Shown: piece by piece, positions 16,570 through 24,508 of the stretch
Numbering within the stretch: position 1 is the first letter of the stretch
Layout of the letters: each line of letters opens with the position of its first letter
DNA from: Candidatus Magnetocorallium paracelense
GTDB taxonomy: Bacteria; Nitrospirota; Thermodesulfovibrionia; Thermodesulfovibrionales; Magnetobacteriaceae
Direction of reading: 5' to 3'
DNA: 33,677 bases
Assembly (NCBI GenBank): GCA_029001845.1
Contig: JAREWP010000022.1
Location: forward strand, 1 to 33,677
Position numbers and translations under genes: made by a program
Notes under the pieces: model-generated
Seen by the model: the letters and a program-made list of their open reading frames with translations, nothing else
What the model was told of the DNA's origin: nothing
Databases searched by the model: none

Positions 16570-16718
16570 GATATCGTCGGCATGTTGTGCGCCTGTCTAT
16601 GTTACAATAATTCCACTTTTAACGTAAACGATAAACCCGGGAGACAGGTGTTTTGCTTCAGTACTGTCAGACTGTTAATGAATTTACAACCGGATACAGC
16701 AGCATACCGGACATTTAA

Positions 16719-16759
16719 TTGACGATTTTCGATTGATGATTGACGATTTAGGGATTGTT
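16719..16759. repeat. Dispersed TTGACGATTTA repeat, second locus
   Basis: TTGACGATTTT (16719), a TTGATGA variant (16733) and TTGACGATTTAGGGATTGT (16740-16758). The last matches 5757-5775 exactly. Confidence 0.6.
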
Positions 16760-16900
16760 GACTATTGATTTCTAATGCTGACTTTTCTTTGCGATAGTGT
16801 GTTCTAAGAACTTTTGCTTTATATGGAAGATCGGTAAAAATTGTCGATATAGGTTTCTTGAGGGGCTTAGTAGTTATAAATTGCGCTACATTTTACTTTA

Positions 16901-16931
16901 GCTGAAAGCTGACCGCTGACAGCTGACGGCT
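16901..16931. repeat. Heptamer tandem repeat GCTGANN
   Basis: Four 7-base units GCTGAAA, GCTGACC, GCTGACA, GCTGACG and a partial GCT, directly followed by seven T. Because GCTGAC/AGCTGAC can form weak internal hairpins before the T-run, a terminator role is possible, but no gene ends here on the plus strand. Confidence 0.7.
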
Positions 16932-16974
16932 TTTTTTAGGATTTGAGATTGTGACGACATGATCTGCCTGCGCT

Positions 16975-17028
16975 AAATTATGTGTGGCGATTTTGATAAC
17001 AGGTTTTGTAAAATTAAGTGTGGATTTT
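16975..17028 (+). promoter_or_regulatory. Spaced direct repeat upstream of the lpxA operon
   Basis: AAATTATGTGTGGCGATTTT (16975-16994) and AAATTAAGTGTGGATTTT (17011-17028) are near-identical and 36 bases apart, 28-80 bases before the lpxA start. Two same-face direct repeats in this position look like binding sites for a regulator; none is identified. A weak promoter (TTGTAA at 17006, TATTTT at 17030) would overlap the second copy. Confidence 0.4.
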
Positions 17029-17055
17029 CTATTTTGAATTTGCATAAAGGAATCA

Positions 17056-17850
17056 TTGTACAATAATACAAAACATCAGATACACCCCACTGCTGTAATA
17101 GAGAATCGTACAGAGCTGGGAGAAAATGTCGTTATAGGTCCTTATACGGTTATTACCGGTCATGTGAAAATAGGCTCTGACACGGTGATTCAAGAGCGAG
17201 TTTCCATTACGGGCAATACCATTATTGGGATGAAAAACATCATACATCCCGGGGCGGTTATCGGTTCATCTCCGCAGGATACGAATCATATGACCAAACA
17301 GGGTTCTCTTGTTATTGGCGATAACAATGTGATTCGAGAGTATGTAACCATTAACACCTCCACGGATCAACAGGGGAAAACCTCTATTGGTAATAATAAT
17401 TACCTCATGGCCTATAGTCATGTAGCTCATGATTGTACAGTCGGCAATCATGTTGTGCTGTCAAATTCCGTTAATCTTGGCGGTTATGTAATGGTTGATG
17501 ATTATACGGTCTTTGGAGGTGACTCCGGCGCCCATCAGCATGTCCGAATAGGTAAGCTGGTGATGGTGGGAGGATGCTCCAAGTTGGTCCAGGATATTCC
17601 CCCTTTTATGATCGTTGACGGTTATCCGGCAAAAATTCGTGGTATAAACATGGTCGGTCTCAACAGAATCGGTCTGTCCGGACAGGATAAGGCAGCCATA
17701 AAAAAGGCTTACAAAGTTATTTATCGCTCAGGTCTTTCTTTTAAAAGCGCCGTGGAAAAGCTGGAACAGGACAGGCCCTTACACAACCTGGTCGAGTATC
17801 TGATCTGCTTTATTAAAGAAACGGATCGGGGGATTTGCAAAGGGATTTGA
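17056..17850 (+). CDS. lpxA: Acyl-ACP:UDP-N-acetylglucosamine O-acyltransferase
   Basis: A 264-residue left-handed beta-helix acyltransferase, the first step of lipid A synthesis: transfer of a 3-hydroxyacyl chain from ACP to the 3-OH of UDP-GlcNAc in the cytosol. It opens with HQIHPTAVI, has many hexapeptide repeats ([IV]-G-x4), the SSPQD loop, and the catalytic region SHVAHDCTVGN with His125 as general base (E. coli-like numbering). His122 and His160 (GAHQH) and Gly173 (the chain-length ruler position in E. coli) are also present, but position 144 is Tyr (GGYVMVDD) where E. coli has His. The C-terminal helical domain is present. TTG at 17056 is the best start, with AAAGGA four bases upstream. 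lpxD, fabZ and lpxB, the usual neighbours, are absent; this lpxA heads a six-gene envelope operon instead. Confidence 0.95.
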   Translation: MYNNTKHQIHPTAVIENRTELGENVVIGPYTVITGHVKIGSDTVIQERVSITGNTIIGMKNIIHPGAVIGSSPQDTNHMTKQGSLVIGDNNVIREYVTINTSTDQQGKTSIGNNNYLMAYSHVAHDCTVGNHVVLSNSVNLGGYVMVDDYTVFGGDSGAHQHVRIGKLVMVGGCSKLVQDIPPFMIVDGYPAKIRGINMVGLNRIGLSGQDKAAIKKAYKVIYRSGLSFKSAVEKLEQDRPLHNLVEYLICFIKETDRGICKGI

Positions 17851-17854
17851 TATT

Positions 17855-18844
17855 ATGAGAGAGCCTGAATTACCTGGAATGAATAATGATGATTATAAAG
17901 GTTTAAACATATGGCATCTATCGGGAAACAGAGAAAATAAAAGGGGCAGAGGAATCGTGATAGGCAGGGGATTTGGCGTGCCTGTCAATATCGAGGATGA
18001 GAGATGGGCTTACATGTTTCATGAGCTCGGTTATGCAGTAGCTTATTGTCATTACACAGGGACATGGTTTGAAAACAGAAATAGAGGAGACTTTCTTGAA
18101 ATGAAAGAGGATGTCATCTCTATTGAATCGGATATTTTAAGAACGATCGATTTCCTTGTGGAAACCCAAGGTATAGAAGACATTACCGTAATCGGTAATT
18201 GCTTTGGCGCCAATCCGATTTTGGCGGCAAGCGCCAAACGTAAGGCTGTCAGTAAGATCATCACGATCGGCGGCAGTATATTTACCGATAACAGGGCCAT
18301 GAACAGACAATATTTGGAAATGGACAGAAATATTGGCAAAAAAAATGCAGACCTGCCTACGGATTATTGTCTGATGTTGGGAAGGATGCACAAAAAAGAG
18401 TACGAACATAACTCTTACATTGGCTTTGATTATAGAAGATATAAAGATATGGTGTTGGGAAAAACCACTCTCAATGCCTATCATTATAAAAAAGAACTGG
18501 CTGATAAAGACTATCTTGGCATACACTCTTATGATGACAGGCTCATCTCTTACAAACGTACAGAGGCTTTTGGGAATACCTTATCGGAGTTTAAAAGAGA
18601 AAATAATTCCCGTACCTTAACGGAGTTGTGGATGATTCATCCGAAAGATTATGGCTGTGACTCGATAGGTCACAGAGGTATTGAGAAAGTTCCCGGATTT
18701 CACGAAAGAGTATTTCGTTTTTTAGATAATAATGAAGATACTGATATTATAAACAGTATGGTGTTACGTCTTTTTGAGCAATATACCAATCAAAAAGACT
18801 TTATAAACAGAAGCGAGTATATCGATAATAGATCAATGGTATGA
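17855..18844 (+). CDS. Alpha/beta-hydrolase-like protein with Cys nucleophile elbow
   Basis: A 329-residue soluble protein with no signal peptide. A GIVIGRGFG strand-loop, a predicted strand ITVIG and then the elbow G-N-C-F-G (Cys116) fit the alpha/beta-hydrolase pattern G-x-[SC]-x-G, with Cys in the nucleophile position as in dienelactone-hydrolase-type enzymes. Asp227/Asp228 (HSYDDRL) and His273 (SIGHRG) follow in the right order for a catalytic triad. It starts four bases after the lpxA stop and its own stop overlaps the ATG of the first PqiA half (ATGA), so it belongs to the operon. A role on acyl-ACP, lipid or lipid A intermediates is inferred from context only; I do not recognise a characterised family. 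Confidence 0.75.
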   Translation: MREPELPGMNNDDYKGLNIWHLSGNRENKRGRGIVIGRGFGVPVNIEDERWAYMFHELGYAVAYCHYTGTWFENRNRGDFLEMKEDVISIESDILRTIDFLVETQGIEDITVIGNCFGANPILAASAKRKAVSKIITIGGSIFTDNRAMNRQYLEMDRNIGKKNADLPTDYCLMLGRMHKKEYEHNSYIGFDYRRYKDMVLGKTTLNAYHYKKELADKDYLGIHSYDDRLISYKRTEAFGNTLSEFKRENNSRTLTELWMIHPKDYGCDSIGHRGIEKVPGFHERVFRFLDNNEDTDIINSMVLRLFEQYTNQKDFINRSEYIDNRSMV

Positions 18845-19437
18845 TGAGTCATATAATCGCATGTCATGAGTGCGATATGCTGCACAAGGTAAAGCATATA
18901 GAACGTGGCGCGGCCAGATGTTTGAGATGCAGTGCTGTATTATATGAAAGTAAGAAAAATTCAATTAACAGAGCTTCTGCTTTAACATTGACAGCGTTGA
19001 TTTTATTTATTCCGGCAAATTTATTCCCCTTTTTATCATTGACGATCGAAGGTCAGGAGAATAGAACCACTTTACTGACAGGAATAAAAGCGCTTTATTT
19101 GCAAGGGATGCCTGAACTTGCTTTTCTGGTATTTCTGACTGTTATAGCAGTTCCTTTATTTCAAATAACAGGTTTATTATATATATTTACAGCATTACGT
19201 TTTAAAGTGTTGCCGTCTTTTCCTGTTCTCTTTAGATATATTCTCTGCACTCGTACATGGGGTATGATGGAAATTTTTTTTCTTGGAATTCTTGTATCTG
19301 TCGTTAAACTGGCCGGAATGGCGAAGATAATACCCGGGCCTGCCCTCTACTCCTTTTTTCTCTTAATTTTCGCTGTTACAGCGGCTTTTGCTTCCATAGA
19401 CGACAGGAGCGTGTGGGAGCGCTTCGATTTGAAATGA
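18841..19437 (+). CDS. pqiA: PqiA/LetA-like membrane protein, first half
   Basis: A 198-residue inner-membrane protein with an N-terminal zinc-ribbon-like pair of CxxC motifs (Cys8/Cys11 and CLRC), then NSINRASALT and four predicted membrane helices, the single-module form of the PqiA/YebS fold. E. coli PqiA and LetA carry two such modules in one chain; here they are split over two genes. With an MCE protein these form complexes thought to move lipids between inner and outer membranes. Overlaps its upstream neighbour by four bases and its downstream neighbour at ATGA. Confidence 0.88.
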   Translation: MMSHIIACHECDMLHKVKHIERGAARCLRCSAVLYESKKNSINRASALTLTALILFIPANLFPFLSLTIEGQENRTTLLTGIKALYLQGMPELAFLVFLTVIAVPLFQITGLLYIFTALRFKVLPSFPVLFRYILCTRTWGMMEIFFLGILVSVVKLAGMAKIIPGPALYSFFLLIFAVTAAFASIDDRSVWERFDLK

Positions 19438-20126
19438 AATCATTGTTACCTATAACCGCATCGGATGCCTCAATGGTAAGTTGCCATAGTTGCAGTCTGT
19501 TATTTCTTAACAAGGGAATTCATCGTCTCAATATGGCAAACATGAAATGTCATCGATGCGGCGCCATATTACACGAAAGGAAACAGAACAGCCTGAACAG
19601 AACTGTGGCTCTGCTTGTTGCCGCATTTATATTTTACATCCCTGCCAATGTTTTACCGGTTATGACTGTCACATCCTTTGGAAGAGAGCAGGCCGACACC
19701 ATCATGAGCGGTGTTATTCACCTTGTGGTTACAGGCATGTGGCCGCCGGCCATTGTTGTTTTCATCGCCAGCATAATAGTACCTGTGATGAAGCTTTTAA
19801 TACTGACCTTTCTTGTGATCTCAGTAAAAAAGAAATCCAATTGGAGACCTCTTGAGCGTACATATCTTTATCGAATGACAGAGATTTCCGGGAGGTGGTC
19901 CATGATAGATATTTTTGTAATCACAATACTTATTGCGCTGGTGGATATGGGATCGATGGCGACTGTGGAGGCTGAATCGGGCGCTCTGTTTTTTGCCGCC
20001 GTTGTTATTATAACAATGTTTGCCGCTATGAGTTTCGATCCGAGGTTGATATGGGATGGAGCAGGTAAAAATGCCGAACCCCGGGGTATAATAGAAGAGA
20101 ATCTTTACCCATTGGAAAAAGAGTAA
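19434..20126 (+). CDS. pqiA: PqiA/LetA-like membrane protein, second half
   Basis: About 230 residues from the chosen ATG. Again two Cys pairs (CHSC, CHRC), then NSLNRTVAL and helices including FYIPANVLPVMTVTSFG, the conserved PqiA core, and GRWSMIDIF. ATG at 19434 overlaps the previous stop as ATGA, matching the coupling used throughout this operon; a GTG at 19413 is in frame but has its ribosome site only three bases away. This half corresponds to the C-terminal module of E. coli PqiA. Its stop is two bases before the PqiB start. Confidence 0.88.
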   Translation: MKSLLPITASDASMVSCHSCSLLFLNKGIHRLNMANMKCHRCGAILHERKQNSLNRTVALLVAAFIFYIPANVLPVMTVTSFGREQADTIMSGVIHLVVTGMWPPAIVVFIASIIVPVMKLLILTFLVISVKKKSNWRPLERTYLYRMTEISGRWSMIDIFVITILIALVDMGSMATVEAESGALFFAAVVIITMFAAMSFDPRLIWDGAGKNAEPRGIIEENLYPLEKE

Positions 20127-20128
20127 CA

Positions 20129-21862
20129 ATGACCGAGAACGAGATTAAAGAAAACTCCGACAAAGTAACCGATAATATTCCGGAACCGGTTATCATAAAG
20201 AGAAAGGGGATTTCCATTGTATGGGCCGTACCGGTTATTGCTCTTCTTATCGCTTTGTGGTTGGTTTATAAGGCTCTTTCCGGTATCGGTCCGGAGATTT
20301 CAATTACTTTCCCTTCTGCCGAAGGATTGGAGGCAGGAAAGACAAAGATTAAATATAAAGATGTGGAAATCGGAAGGGTAGAAGATGTCCGTTTGAGCGA
20401 TGATTTGAAGAGTGTCGTTGTTACAGCCTGTTTGTCAAAGGATTCCGACAAGTTATTACGAGAAGGCACAAGGTTTTGGGTCGTTCGACCAAGAATAAAA
20501 GCTACCGGAATAACCGGCCTGGGAACACTTCTGTCAGGTGTATATATTGGTATAGATCCGGGGAAGGGTGATGTCTTTACGGACCGATTTATCGCCCTTG
20601 AAACACCGCCTGTTGTTATGAGCGATTCTCCGGGAAGGTATTTTATCTTGCACTCCGACACGTTGGGTTCCCTGGACAGAGGCTCTCCTGTATATTACAG
20701 ACAGATGAAAGCAGGCGAGGTGCTGGGATTCAATTTGAATCCCGATAACAGTGGCGTTAGTATTAAGATATTCGTATATGACCCGTATTATAAGTTTGTA
20801 TGGAAAAATACAAAGTTCTGGAATGACAGCGGTATCGATTTAACTGTCGACGCAAACGGTTTCAGAGTAAGTACGGAGTCTTTTGTGAGTTTCGTTATCG
20901 GCGGCATCGCCTTTGATACGCCGGTAAACCTGGAATCGGGAATTCCCGTGAACAATGGCGCCGAATTTCTTCTCTACAAGAATCGCGAAAGCGCACACGA
21001 TAAGGTTTATACAGATAAGGAGTATTATATTCTATATTTCGACGAATCCATACGGGGGTTGACTGTAGGCGCCCCTGTTGAATTCAGAGGTATTCGCCTT
21101 GGCCAGGTGAAAGATATTAAACTAATGTTTAACAGAGAGGATATGAAAGTTAAAATACCTGTTTTAATAGAAATCGAGCATGACAGGGTAAGCGTACCCG
21201 GTAAAGAGGTCGGTGACAGATTAAGTAATATGGAAATGTTTGTAAGCAGGGGACTCAGAGCTCAGTTAAAACTGGGCAATATTATAAGCGGCCAGCTTTT
21301 TGTAGATCTCGATTTTCATCCTCAGTCGCCTCGTGCAAAGATAAACTACGATAGCAAATATCCTGAATTGCCTACAATTCACAAGTCAATGGAGATAATA
21401 AACAGGAGTCTTCTAAAGGTCGTTAATAAATTACAGCAAATGCCTCTTGACGAGATTGTCGACAATTTCAGAAAAACTTTAAGCGGCGCAGAGCAACTTA
21501 TGAACTCTGAAGACCTCCGTACTGCCATTACATCTTTTAATGAGGCTGCGCACCATATCGGCGAGTTCTCGGAATCTCTTAACAGCGATTTTTATCCGAG
21601 ACTCAGCAATGCCGTAACCGATATAAACACCTTTACCGGCAGTCTGAACGCAAGTTCTCTTCCTAAAATCGAGGCCGCTGTATCGGAAGCGCATAAAACT
21701 CTTGAAGAGTTCGGGAAGATTGTAAGCAGAGATTCCCCTTTATATAATGAATTACATAAAACATTAGCGGAATTATCCGATGCCGCCCGTTCTGTCAGGA
21801 TTTTAACGGACTATCTTGAAAGGCACCCCGATGCTTTAATTCACGGTAAACAAAAGAGGTGA
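20129..21862 (+). CDS. pqiB: PqiB-like MCE-domain lipid transport protein
   Basis: A 577-residue periplasmic protein anchored by one N-terminal helix (about 28-50, preceded by IKRKG). Three MCE modules follow, beginning near residues 52 (ISITFPSAEGLEAG), 170 (FILHSDTLGSLDRG) and 295 (ILYFDESIRGLTVG), then a long helical C-terminus (about 430-560). Three MCE domains plus a helical tail is the E. coli PqiB plan (LetB has seven); PqiB builds a hexameric syringe across the periplasm for lipid passage. The stop overlaps the start of the following lipoprotein gene. Confidence 0.92.
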   Translation: MTENEIKENSDKVTDNIPEPVIIKRKGISIVWAVPVIALLIALWLVYKALSGIGPEISITFPSAEGLEAGKTKIKYKDVEIGRVEDVRLSDDLKSVVVTACLSKDSDKLLREGTRFWVVRPRIKATGITGLGTLLSGVYIGIDPGKGDVFTDRFIALETPPVVMSDSPGRYFILHSDTLGSLDRGSPVYYRQMKAGEVLGFNLNPDNSGVSIKIFVYDPYYKFVWKNTKFWNDSGIDLTVDANGFRVSTESFVSFVIGGIAFDTPVNLESGIPVNNGAEFLLYKNRESAHDKVYTDKEYYILYFDESIRGLTVGAPVEFRGIRLGQVKDIKLMFNREDMKVKIPVLIEIEHDRVSVPGKEVGDRLSNMEMFVSRGLRAQLKLGNIISGQLFVDLDFHPQSPRAKINYDSKYPELPTIHKSMEIINRSLLKVVNKLQQMPLDEIVDNFRKTLSGAEQLMNSEDLRTAITSFNEAAHHIGEFSESLNSDFYPRLSNAVTDINTFTGSLNASSLPKIEAAVSEAHKTLEEFGKIVSRDSPLYNELHKTLAELSDAARSVRILTDYLERHPDALIHGKQKR

Positions 21863-22464
21863 ATATGAGATTTTCATTTATATTTATATTATTTATAACT
21901 GCAATTTTAATGACAGGATGTATTGGTCCCTCTCCTGATGCAGATTTTTACACTCTGAATTCGCTCACATCCGTTCCCGATGGTAATATAAGAGATCCCT
22001 TGAGAGACGATCTCTCTGTTGGTTTGAAACTCTCCGATTTACCGAAGATGATAGATCGACCGAATATTGTAACAAGGGTTTCTGACAATAAGGTCGAAGT
22101 TTCTGAATTCCACAGATGGGCCGGCTCGCTCGATGAAGACTTTATGCGTGTGTTGACTGAAAATTTATCGCTTTTGCTAAATTCGACGAGAGTTTTTTCT
22201 TATCCCTGGCAAGAGTATGTCAGGCCCGAATACAGAGTTTACATAAAAATCATTCAAATAGACGGTATGGCAGGTAAAGAGGCGACCATTAAGGTCAAAT
22301 GGACAATTACAGATAAAGAGGGAATGAAACCTGCGGTAATAAAGAAATTCATCGGAAACGAACCGTTGTTGGACAGTTCCTATGAAACATTTGTCTCTGC
22401 TTTAAGTAAATTGAGTGCTGACTTGAGTTATGAGATTGGCGAGGAAATTTTGAGATTGCAGTGA
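21859..22464 (+). CDS. pqiC: PqiC-like outer-membrane lipoprotein (ABC-type transport auxiliary family)
   Basis: A 201-residue lipoprotein. Signal peptide FSFIFILFITAIL with lipobox LMTGC, then DADFYTLNSL, the start characteristic of the PqiC/YmbA (DUF330) family that docks the PqiB syringe at the outer membrane. GTG at 21859 overlaps the pqiB stop; ATG at 21865 with AGAGGTG just upstream is an equally good start. Last gene of the operon; no clear terminator follows. Confidence 0.88.
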   Translation: MNMRFSFIFILFITAILMTGCIGPSPDADFYTLNSLTSVPDGNIRDPLRDDLSVGLKLSDLPKMIDRPNIVTRVSDNKVEVSEFHRWAGSLDEDFMRVLTENLSLLLNSTRVFSYPWQEYVRPEYRVYIKIIQIDGMAGKEATIKVKWTITDKEGMKPAVIKKFIGNEPLLDSSYETFVSALSKLSADLSYEIGEEILRLQ

Positions 22465-23226: not shown

Positions 23227-23259
23227 GTGAATATACACACTGATCCATATGCGGCATGA
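23227..23259 (+). other. Possible 10-codon upstream leader peptide
   Basis: GTG at 23227 has a strong Shine-Dalgarno GGAGG four bases upstream and encodes MNIHTDPYAA before a TGA. It overlaps the channel ATG (23249) in another frame, which lacks a ribosome site of its own. Translation of the leader could feed ribosomes to the channel start. Small and unsupported by conservation data. Confidence 0.35.
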
Positions 23260-24508
23260 AATTACACTACCTTATCTCTTTTGGGATCTGCTGATTACGT
23301 TGAGCGTCACTTTAGTGGCGCTCTTCATACCTCTTGAGCTTGTTCTTGGATTTTATAATCACCCTGCCTTTGTGATTGGAGATTATGCGATCACATTGAT
23401 TTTTTTTATAGATGTATTCATCAACTTTCGTCGTCCCGTTACCATTGGACGAGAGATCATTACAGATCGTCAGTTACTCTCAAGACATTATCTCAGAGAT
23501 TGGTTTATAATTGATCTTCTTGCCGCTTTTCCATTTGCTCCGGTTTTCGGATTCACTTTTTTACTACTATTCAGACTTTTCAAGTTTGCACGTGTCGTGT
23601 ATCTGATGCGTCGGTGGCGTCAGTTGCAGATGCATAAAACAGCTTTAATCCGTTTAACGACTTTCTCCTTTTGGCTGACCCTTACTGCTCACTGGCTGGC
23701 TTGCGGATGGTTAGCTTTGCGCAGTATACCTCAAGACACTTCTGAATATACGGCTTATCTTGGCGCTCTGTATTGGTGTGTTACTACTTTAACGACAGTG
23801 GGCTATGGAGATGTCACACCTTCTACAGAAGGAGAGATGATGTATGCCATGCTTGTAATGATACTTGGTGTAGGAGTTTATGGTTATGTTATAGGTAATG
23901 TGGCGAATGTGCTGACAAATATGGATTTGGCGAAAGCCCGTTATCTGGCCAAGATGGAGAGCATTTCTACCTTTTTAAACTATCGTAACGTACCTGTTGC
24001 TTTACAAAAACGAATTTACGACTACTACGCCTATTTGTGGGAAAAGAGGCTTGGATATGACGAAACTGCCGTAATGTCCGAACTGCCTGTAAGTTTACGT
24101 TCCGAGCTCTCGCTTGTACTTAATCGAGACTTTATCAGAAAGGTTCCCTTTTTTCAAGAGGCGAGTCAGGAATTCATTTGCGATATTGCTCTTGAATTGA
24201 AACCTGTTATTATTATCCCGGGAGATTACGTTTTCAAGGCAGGAGAGATAGGCCGGCGTATGTATTTTATCGGTCATGGCATGGTTGAAGTGATTTCGTC
24301 AGAAAGCGGGACAATTATACGCACCCTTTCAGAGGGAGACTTCTTCGGTGAGATTGCGTTGATGAAAAGTCAGCCTCGCACGGCAAGCGTACGGGCAATA
24401 GACTACTGTGATCTCTATGCTCTTGATAAAGATACATTTGATCGTGTTCTAAGCAATCATCCCGATTTTGCCAGGTATATTCAGGATATGGCGGTTAAAC
24501 GTCGGTAG
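23249..24508 (+). CDS. Cyclic-nucleotide-gated potassium channel
   Basis: 419 residues with the voltage-gated/CNG plan: six predicted helices, an S4-like segment with spaced Arg/Lys (RLFKFARVVYLMRRWR, about 109-124), pore helix and K+ filter TTVGYGD (182-188), a C-linker, and a cyclic-nucleotide-binding domain from about 285 to 415 with the phosphate-binding cassette FFGEIALMKSQPRTASV (365-381; Glu368 and Arg377 in place). It resembles SthK/MloK-type prokaryotic channels. The intact cassette predicts cAMP or cGMP control of K+ flux. No cyclase for cAMP or cGMP is in the window. The start is constrained by an in-frame stop 18 bases upstream. Confidence 0.93.
   Translation: MRHEITLPYLFWDLLITLSVTLVALFIPLELVLGFYNHPAFVIGDYAITLIFFIDVFINFRRPVTIGREIITDRQLLSRHYLRDWFIIDLLAAFPFAPVFGFTFLLLFRLFKFARVVYLMRRWRQLQMHKTALIRLTTFSFWLTLTAHWLACGWLALRSIPQDTSEYTAYLGALYWCVTTLTTVGYGDVTPSTEGEMMYAMLVMILGVGVYGYVIGNVANVLTNMDLAKARYLAKMESISTFLNYRNVPVALQKRIYDYYAYLWEKRLGYDETAVMSELPVSLRSELSLVLNRDFIRKVPFFQEASQEFICDIALELKPVIIIPGDYVFKAGEIGRRMYFIGHGMVEVISSESGTIIRTLSEGDFFGEIALMKSQPRTASVRAIDYCDLYALDKDTFDRVLSNHPDFARYIQDMAVKRR

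What the first reader, a model, noticed from the sequence alone, without database searches (positions are those of the whole stretch)
17056..22464. Operon joining lipid A synthesis, an unknown hydrolase and a Pqi-type lipid transporter
Six genes with 4-base gaps or ATGA overlaps: lpxA, a Cys-type alpha/beta hydrolase, two PqiA halves, PqiB and PqiC. LpxA normally sits with lpxD/fabZ/lpxB. Linking it with an MCE transporter suggests a coordinated outer-membrane lipid system in which the hydrolase may act on the transported or acylated lipid.
Basis: partly seen in the sequence, partly recalled or inferred. Interest (0 to 1): 0.6.

Follow-up and report, generated by a model that had tools for sequence, protein, structure and literature searches.

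The report
Pqi lipid-transporter operon with extra LpxA
A bacterium carries, in one tightly packed six-gene cluster, an ordinary membrane-lipid transporter together with a divergent second copy of a lipid A enzyme and a hydrolase without recognisable close relatives; the arrangement is real, but it was seen in no other genome examined, so the proposed functional link is plausible and untested.

Summary
The six genes are present at the stated coordinates, on one strand, with gaps of 2-4 bases or short overlaps. pqiA1-pqiA2-pqiB-pqiC is an ordinary Pqi module. Splitting PqiA into two genes is the usual state in this phylum (17 of 18 loci checked), not an oddity. The genome has a second, canonical lpxA in an lpxD-fabZ-lpxA-lpxI cluster, and single-copy lpxB, lpxC and lpxD. 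The window's LpxA is therefore an extra paralog. It keeps the catalytic His125 but has K76N and H144Y, the two residues described as contacting the sugar 6-OH, and also F162H, which suggests a changed sugar substrate. The 'hydrolase' has a G-N-C-F-G elbow and only a sub-threshold Pfam Abhydrolase match. No convincing relative was found in 395 genomes of the same phylum, 375 and 387 genomes of two other groups, or in plasmids and phages. None of 36 pqi loci of the phylum and none of 56 lpxA loci from elsewhere carries the combination. Best reading: a lineage-restricted envelope-lipid operon pairing a Pqi conduit with an LpxA paralog of altered specificity. Interest is modest.

The parts
17056..17850 (+). 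lpxA2: divergent second LpxA-type acyltransferase (264 aa, TTG start); His125, His122, His160, Asp74, Arg204 kept; K76N, H144Y, F162H
17855..18844 (+). orphan protein, probable alpha/beta-hydrolase fold with Cys nucleophile (GNC116FG; candidate Asp in SYDDR 225-229; candidate His273 in GHRG)
   Evidence: no relatives found; structure prediction failed
18841..19437 (+). pqiA1: first PqiA domain, zinc-ribbon-like CHEC/CLRC pairs
19434..20126 (+). pqiA2: second PqiA domain, CHSC/CHRC pairs (ORF can also start at GTG 19413)
20129..21862 (+). pqiB: MCE protein with three MlaD domains and a C-terminal part after them
21859..22464 (+). pqiC: probable outer-membrane lipoprotein (lipobox-like LMTGC), DUF330/ABC_trans_aux family
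16570..17055 (.). 486-base divergent intergenic stretch upstream; presumed place of the operon promoter, no promoter-like signal above chance

Best explanation
A single operon that adds an LpxA paralog and an orphan Cys-type alpha/beta-hydrolase-like protein to a complete PqiABC inter-membrane lipid conduit. Shown from sequence: gene order, near-zero spacing, full Pqi set, LpxA membership with the catalytic His kept, altered residues in the sugar pocket, a canonical lpxA elsewhere. Inferred: the genes are one transcript; LpxA2 transfers a 3-hydroxyacyl chain from ACP to a UDP-sugar that differs from UDP-GlcNAc, probably around C6; the Cys enzyme removes or transfers an acyl group on the resulting or transported lipid; PqiA1A2-B-C moves envelope lipid between the membranes. 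It is a lineage-restricted accessory module for envelope remodelling, not the housekeeping lipid A pathway.
For: Spacing and isolation of the six genes. A second, canonical lpxA with the pocket residues intact in lpxD-fabZ-lpxA-lpxI; lpxC and lpxD once each, lpxB once plus one sub-threshold match. In LpxA2, 4 of the 9 residues listed as the E. coli GlcNAc pocket differ (L75T, K76N, H144Y, F162H) against 1 in the genome's canonical copy (list from PMC7072397). Among 86 other LpxA sequences His144 is kept in 84, and the two exceptions also lack Lys76; PMC7072397 states that the 6-OH binds Lys72 and His140 in P. aeruginosa, the equivalents. Pqi module identities.
Against: No other genome examined has the combination, so co-function is not supported by conservation. 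Lys76 varies in 17 of 86 LpxAs, Met or Phe replace it in characterised LpxAs, and B. fragilis LpxA appears to have Glu at the His144 position in the table of PMC7072397, so the pocket argument is suggestive only. No second lpxB, lpxC or lpxD is dedicated to a new product. The product of LpxA is a cytoplasmic nucleotide sugar, not an obvious Pqi cargo. The hydrolase fold is not confirmed (pLDDT 35).
Confidence: 0.45

Rival explanations
1. LpxA2 is a redundant or condition-specific isoform for normal lipid A (for example under envelope stress), co-regulated with Pqi but chemically ordinary.
For: Catalytic His125, His122, His160, Asp74, Asn198, Arg204 and Gly173 are all kept; it passes the LpxA equivalog cut-off; no dedicated downstream enzymes exist.
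Against: Very long branch (1.38 changes per site); substitutions include 4 of 9 GlcNAc-pocket residues.
Confidence: 0.3
2. The arrangement is a chance fusion: lpxA2-hydrolase came to lie in front of an ordinary pqi operon and shares only transcription.
For: None of 36 pqi loci of the phylum has lpxA or the hydrolase nearby; none of 56 lpxA loci has pqi nearby; other sampled members of the same family lack both pqiB and the hydrolase.
Against: Overlapping start and stop codons bind the hydrolase to pqiA1; all three parts concern envelope lipid or acyl chemistry; no odd composition.
Confidence: 0.25

Closest known systems
E. coli pqiABC (pqiA-pqiB-ymbA) operon
   Same: PqiA domains, three-MCE PqiB and DUF330 lipoprotein in the same order; PqiB aligns over residues 24-576 with the E. 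coli-type model at 480 bits
   Different: PqiA is two genes here; lpxA2 and a hydrolase precede it; PqiB falls under the NCBIfam equivalog cut-off (480 against 525)
LpxA, UDP-GlcNAc 3-O-acyltransferase (best-scoring solved structure 3hsq; Leptospira interrogans from my knowledge of the entry)
   Same: Full-length family match, catalytic His125 kept
   Different: K76N, H144Y, F162H; not in an lpxD-fabZ-lpxB cluster; second copy in the genome
Cys-nucleophile alpha/beta hydrolases and acyltransferases (dienelactone hydrolase, PhaC, BAAT; recalled, not tested beyond weak profile matches)
   Same: G-x-C-x-G elbow after a predicted strand; sub-threshold profile matches
   Different: No family membership reaches any curated cut-off

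Membership tests
PqiABC transport system | two PqiA domains upstream, PqiB with three MCE domains, DUF330 lipoprotein downstream | tested here: met
   definition from PMC5561183
PqiABC transport system | inter-membrane lipid transport | not testable with these tools
   needs experiment
LpxA | profile match over the equivalog cut-off and catalytic His125 | tested here: met
   (316 against 231 bits)
LpxA | usual GlcNAc-pocket residues Lys76, His144, Phe162 (common, not strictly defining) | tested here: not met
   N, Y, H in LpxA2; these positions vary in some other LpxAs too
LpxA | acylation of UDP-GlcNAc | not testable with these tools
   enzyme assay needed
alpha/beta hydrolase superfamily | profile match over curated cut-off | tested here: not met
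   Abhydrolase_1 19.1 bits against 25.8
alpha/beta hydrolase superfamily | nucleophile elbow and Cys/Ser-Asp-His triad | tested here: inconclusive
   GNC116FG found; Asp and His are guesses without homologs
alpha/beta hydrolase superfamily | alpha/beta-hydrolase fold | tested here: inconclusive
   single-sequence model pLDDT 35, not usable

The most novel reading that the evidence does not exclude
LpxA2 makes a 3-O-acylated UDP-sugar other than UDP-GlcNAc, the orphan Cys enzyme builds or trims a non-lipid-A glycolipid from it, and the Pqi conduit is specialised to carry that glycolipid: an MCE transporter with a dedicated cargo-synthesis pair in its own operon.
Probability: 0.12. Interest if true: 0.7.

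Novelty: new variant of a known kind. Interest (0 to 1): 0.3.

Why it matters
The true cargo and direction of Pqi-type MCE transporters are still open. A pqi operon carrying its own acyltransferase and acyl-hydrolase candidate would offer a genetic clue to cargo. The clue is weak while the arrangement is known from one genome.

Tried and rejected
Hydrolase relatives: peptide-pattern scans of genome contigs and viral contigs, tblastn in plasmids and phages, 395 + 375 + 387 whole genomes. Weak matches were discarded: L149 lies in an asparaginyl-tRNA synthetase-like ORF (named by reading); L154 is a membrane/alpha-beta-hydrolase-like ORF sharing only a short stretch with a Cys elbow; L155 and L156 are chance. 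PDB matches to the hydrolase are chance. Single-sequence AlphaFold gave no usable model, so no fold search was run. Recent horizontal transfer judged by composition: no signal. Duplication of the genome's own lpxA: the tree puts LpxA2 outside the relatives' LpxA clade, but the AU test does not reject joining them (p 0.257), so the origin is unresolved. Papers on lpxA with pqiA or on a second lpxA: nothing relevant.

Full report
Observation. The six genes exist as described. They lie between two opposite-strand genes (uvrD-type helicase upstream, TM2-domain protein downstream), so they form an isolated unit. The intervals are 4 bases, ATGA overlap, ATGA overlap (or 25 bases with the alternative GTG start), 2 bases, and GTGA overlap (or 2 bases with the ATG start). 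Profile searches give LpxA (TIGR01852, 316 bits against a cut-off of 231), PqiA twice, MlaD three times within PqiB, and ABC_trans_aux (DUF330) for PqiC. Base composition and codon use do not distinguish the operon from its surroundings.

The Pqi part is ordinary. In 395 genomes of the same phylum, 51 had a match to PqiB at E 1e-20 or better; some matched only the C-terminal half and look like shorter MCE proteins. Of 18 loci read in full, 17 have PqiA as two adjacent genes and one has a fused PqiA (L087, 447 aa). The paper PMC5561183 describes the general arrangement as two PqiA domains upstream and a DUF330 gene beside the three-MCE protein. Among the other sampled members of the window's own family none had PqiB at that threshold.

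The LpxA part is a second copy. The genome holds another lpxA in an lpxD-fabZ-lpxA-lpxI order on contig C2 (LpxI and FabZ named from reading the sequence). LpxC and LpxD families match once each; LpxB has one strong match and one sub-threshold match. In 60 relatives, 59 had an LpxA match and only this genome had two. LpxA2 is 39-46% identical to the canonical LpxAs it was aligned with. In the tree it sits on a long branch outside the relatives' clade with weak support, and holding it with them is not rejected (p 0.257). Its origin, old duplication or transfer, stays open.

Pocket residues. PMC7072397 lists the E. coli GlcNAc pocket as Gln73, Asp74, Leu75, Lys76, His125, Gly143, His144, Gln161, Phe162, and says that in P. 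aeruginosa the sugar 6-OH binds Lys72 and His140, which correspond to Lys76 and His144. LpxA2 reads Q, D, T, N, H, G, Y, Q, H at these nine places; the genome's canonical copy reads Q, D, M, K, H, G, H, Q, F. Of 86 other LpxAs, 84 have His144, and both exceptions (L133, L135) also lack Lys76. I infer a changed sugar preference, most simply at C6. Caution: Lys76 alone varies in 17 of the 86, and characterised enzymes with Met or Phe there exist.

The hydrolase. No Pfam or NCBIfam model reaches its cut-off. The best are Abhydrolase_1 (E 0.0011, residues 93-148) and, weaker, a quorum-quenching lactonase family and exosortase-associated hydrolase 1. The elbow GNC116FG fits an alpha/beta hydrolase; the single-sequence model (pLDDT 35) is not evidence of fold. 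No convincing relative was found in 395, 375 and 387 genomes of three groups, in plasmids or phages, or by peptide patterns in genome or viral contigs. These are single-sequence searches without a positive control outside this genome, so distant relatives could be missed. Cys-nucleophile members of this superfamily include acyltransferases as well as hydrolases (my knowledge), so 'acyl-handling enzyme' is safer than 'hydrolase'.

Is the linkage conserved? Not in anything examined: none of 36 pqi loci of the phylum (several cut by contig ends) has a match to lpxA or the hydrolase in the few kb around, and none of 56 lpxA loci from other groups has pqi or the hydrolase in up to 10 kb. No other species of the same genus was among the relatives searched.

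Verdict. A real operon-like array made of a standard Pqi module plus a diverged LpxA paralog and an orphan Cys enzyme. Co-function is plausible and unproven. The finding worth keeping is the extra LpxA with an altered sugar pocket beside a Pqi conduit; it is a testable clue, not a new kind of system. The phylum was not named by any tool; from genome sizes and gene content I suspect Nitrospirota, but that is unverified.

Noticed in passing
L135:9995-11664: An lpxA with Ser76/Phe144 is followed directly by a Gfo/Idh/MocA-type oxidoreductase, reminiscent of GnnA, which makes a 3-amino UDP-sugar; pocket changes may track sugar changes. Naming is from sequence reading, no profile was run.
   Followed up: no
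G328 (C46, C68), G199 (C7, C1), G151 (two places), G168 (two places): Several genomes of the phylum carry two full pqi loci; in G168 one has split and one fused PqiA (L072, L087).
   Followed up: partly
L154:1084-2184: An ORF from another phylum seems to join a membrane segment to an alpha/beta-hydrolase-like part with a Cys elbow (VIGTCLGG).
   Followed up: partly
window 23249-24508: Cyclic-nucleotide-binding ion channel protein next to the operon, divergent from a TM2-domain protein; no link to the operon seen.
   Followed up: no
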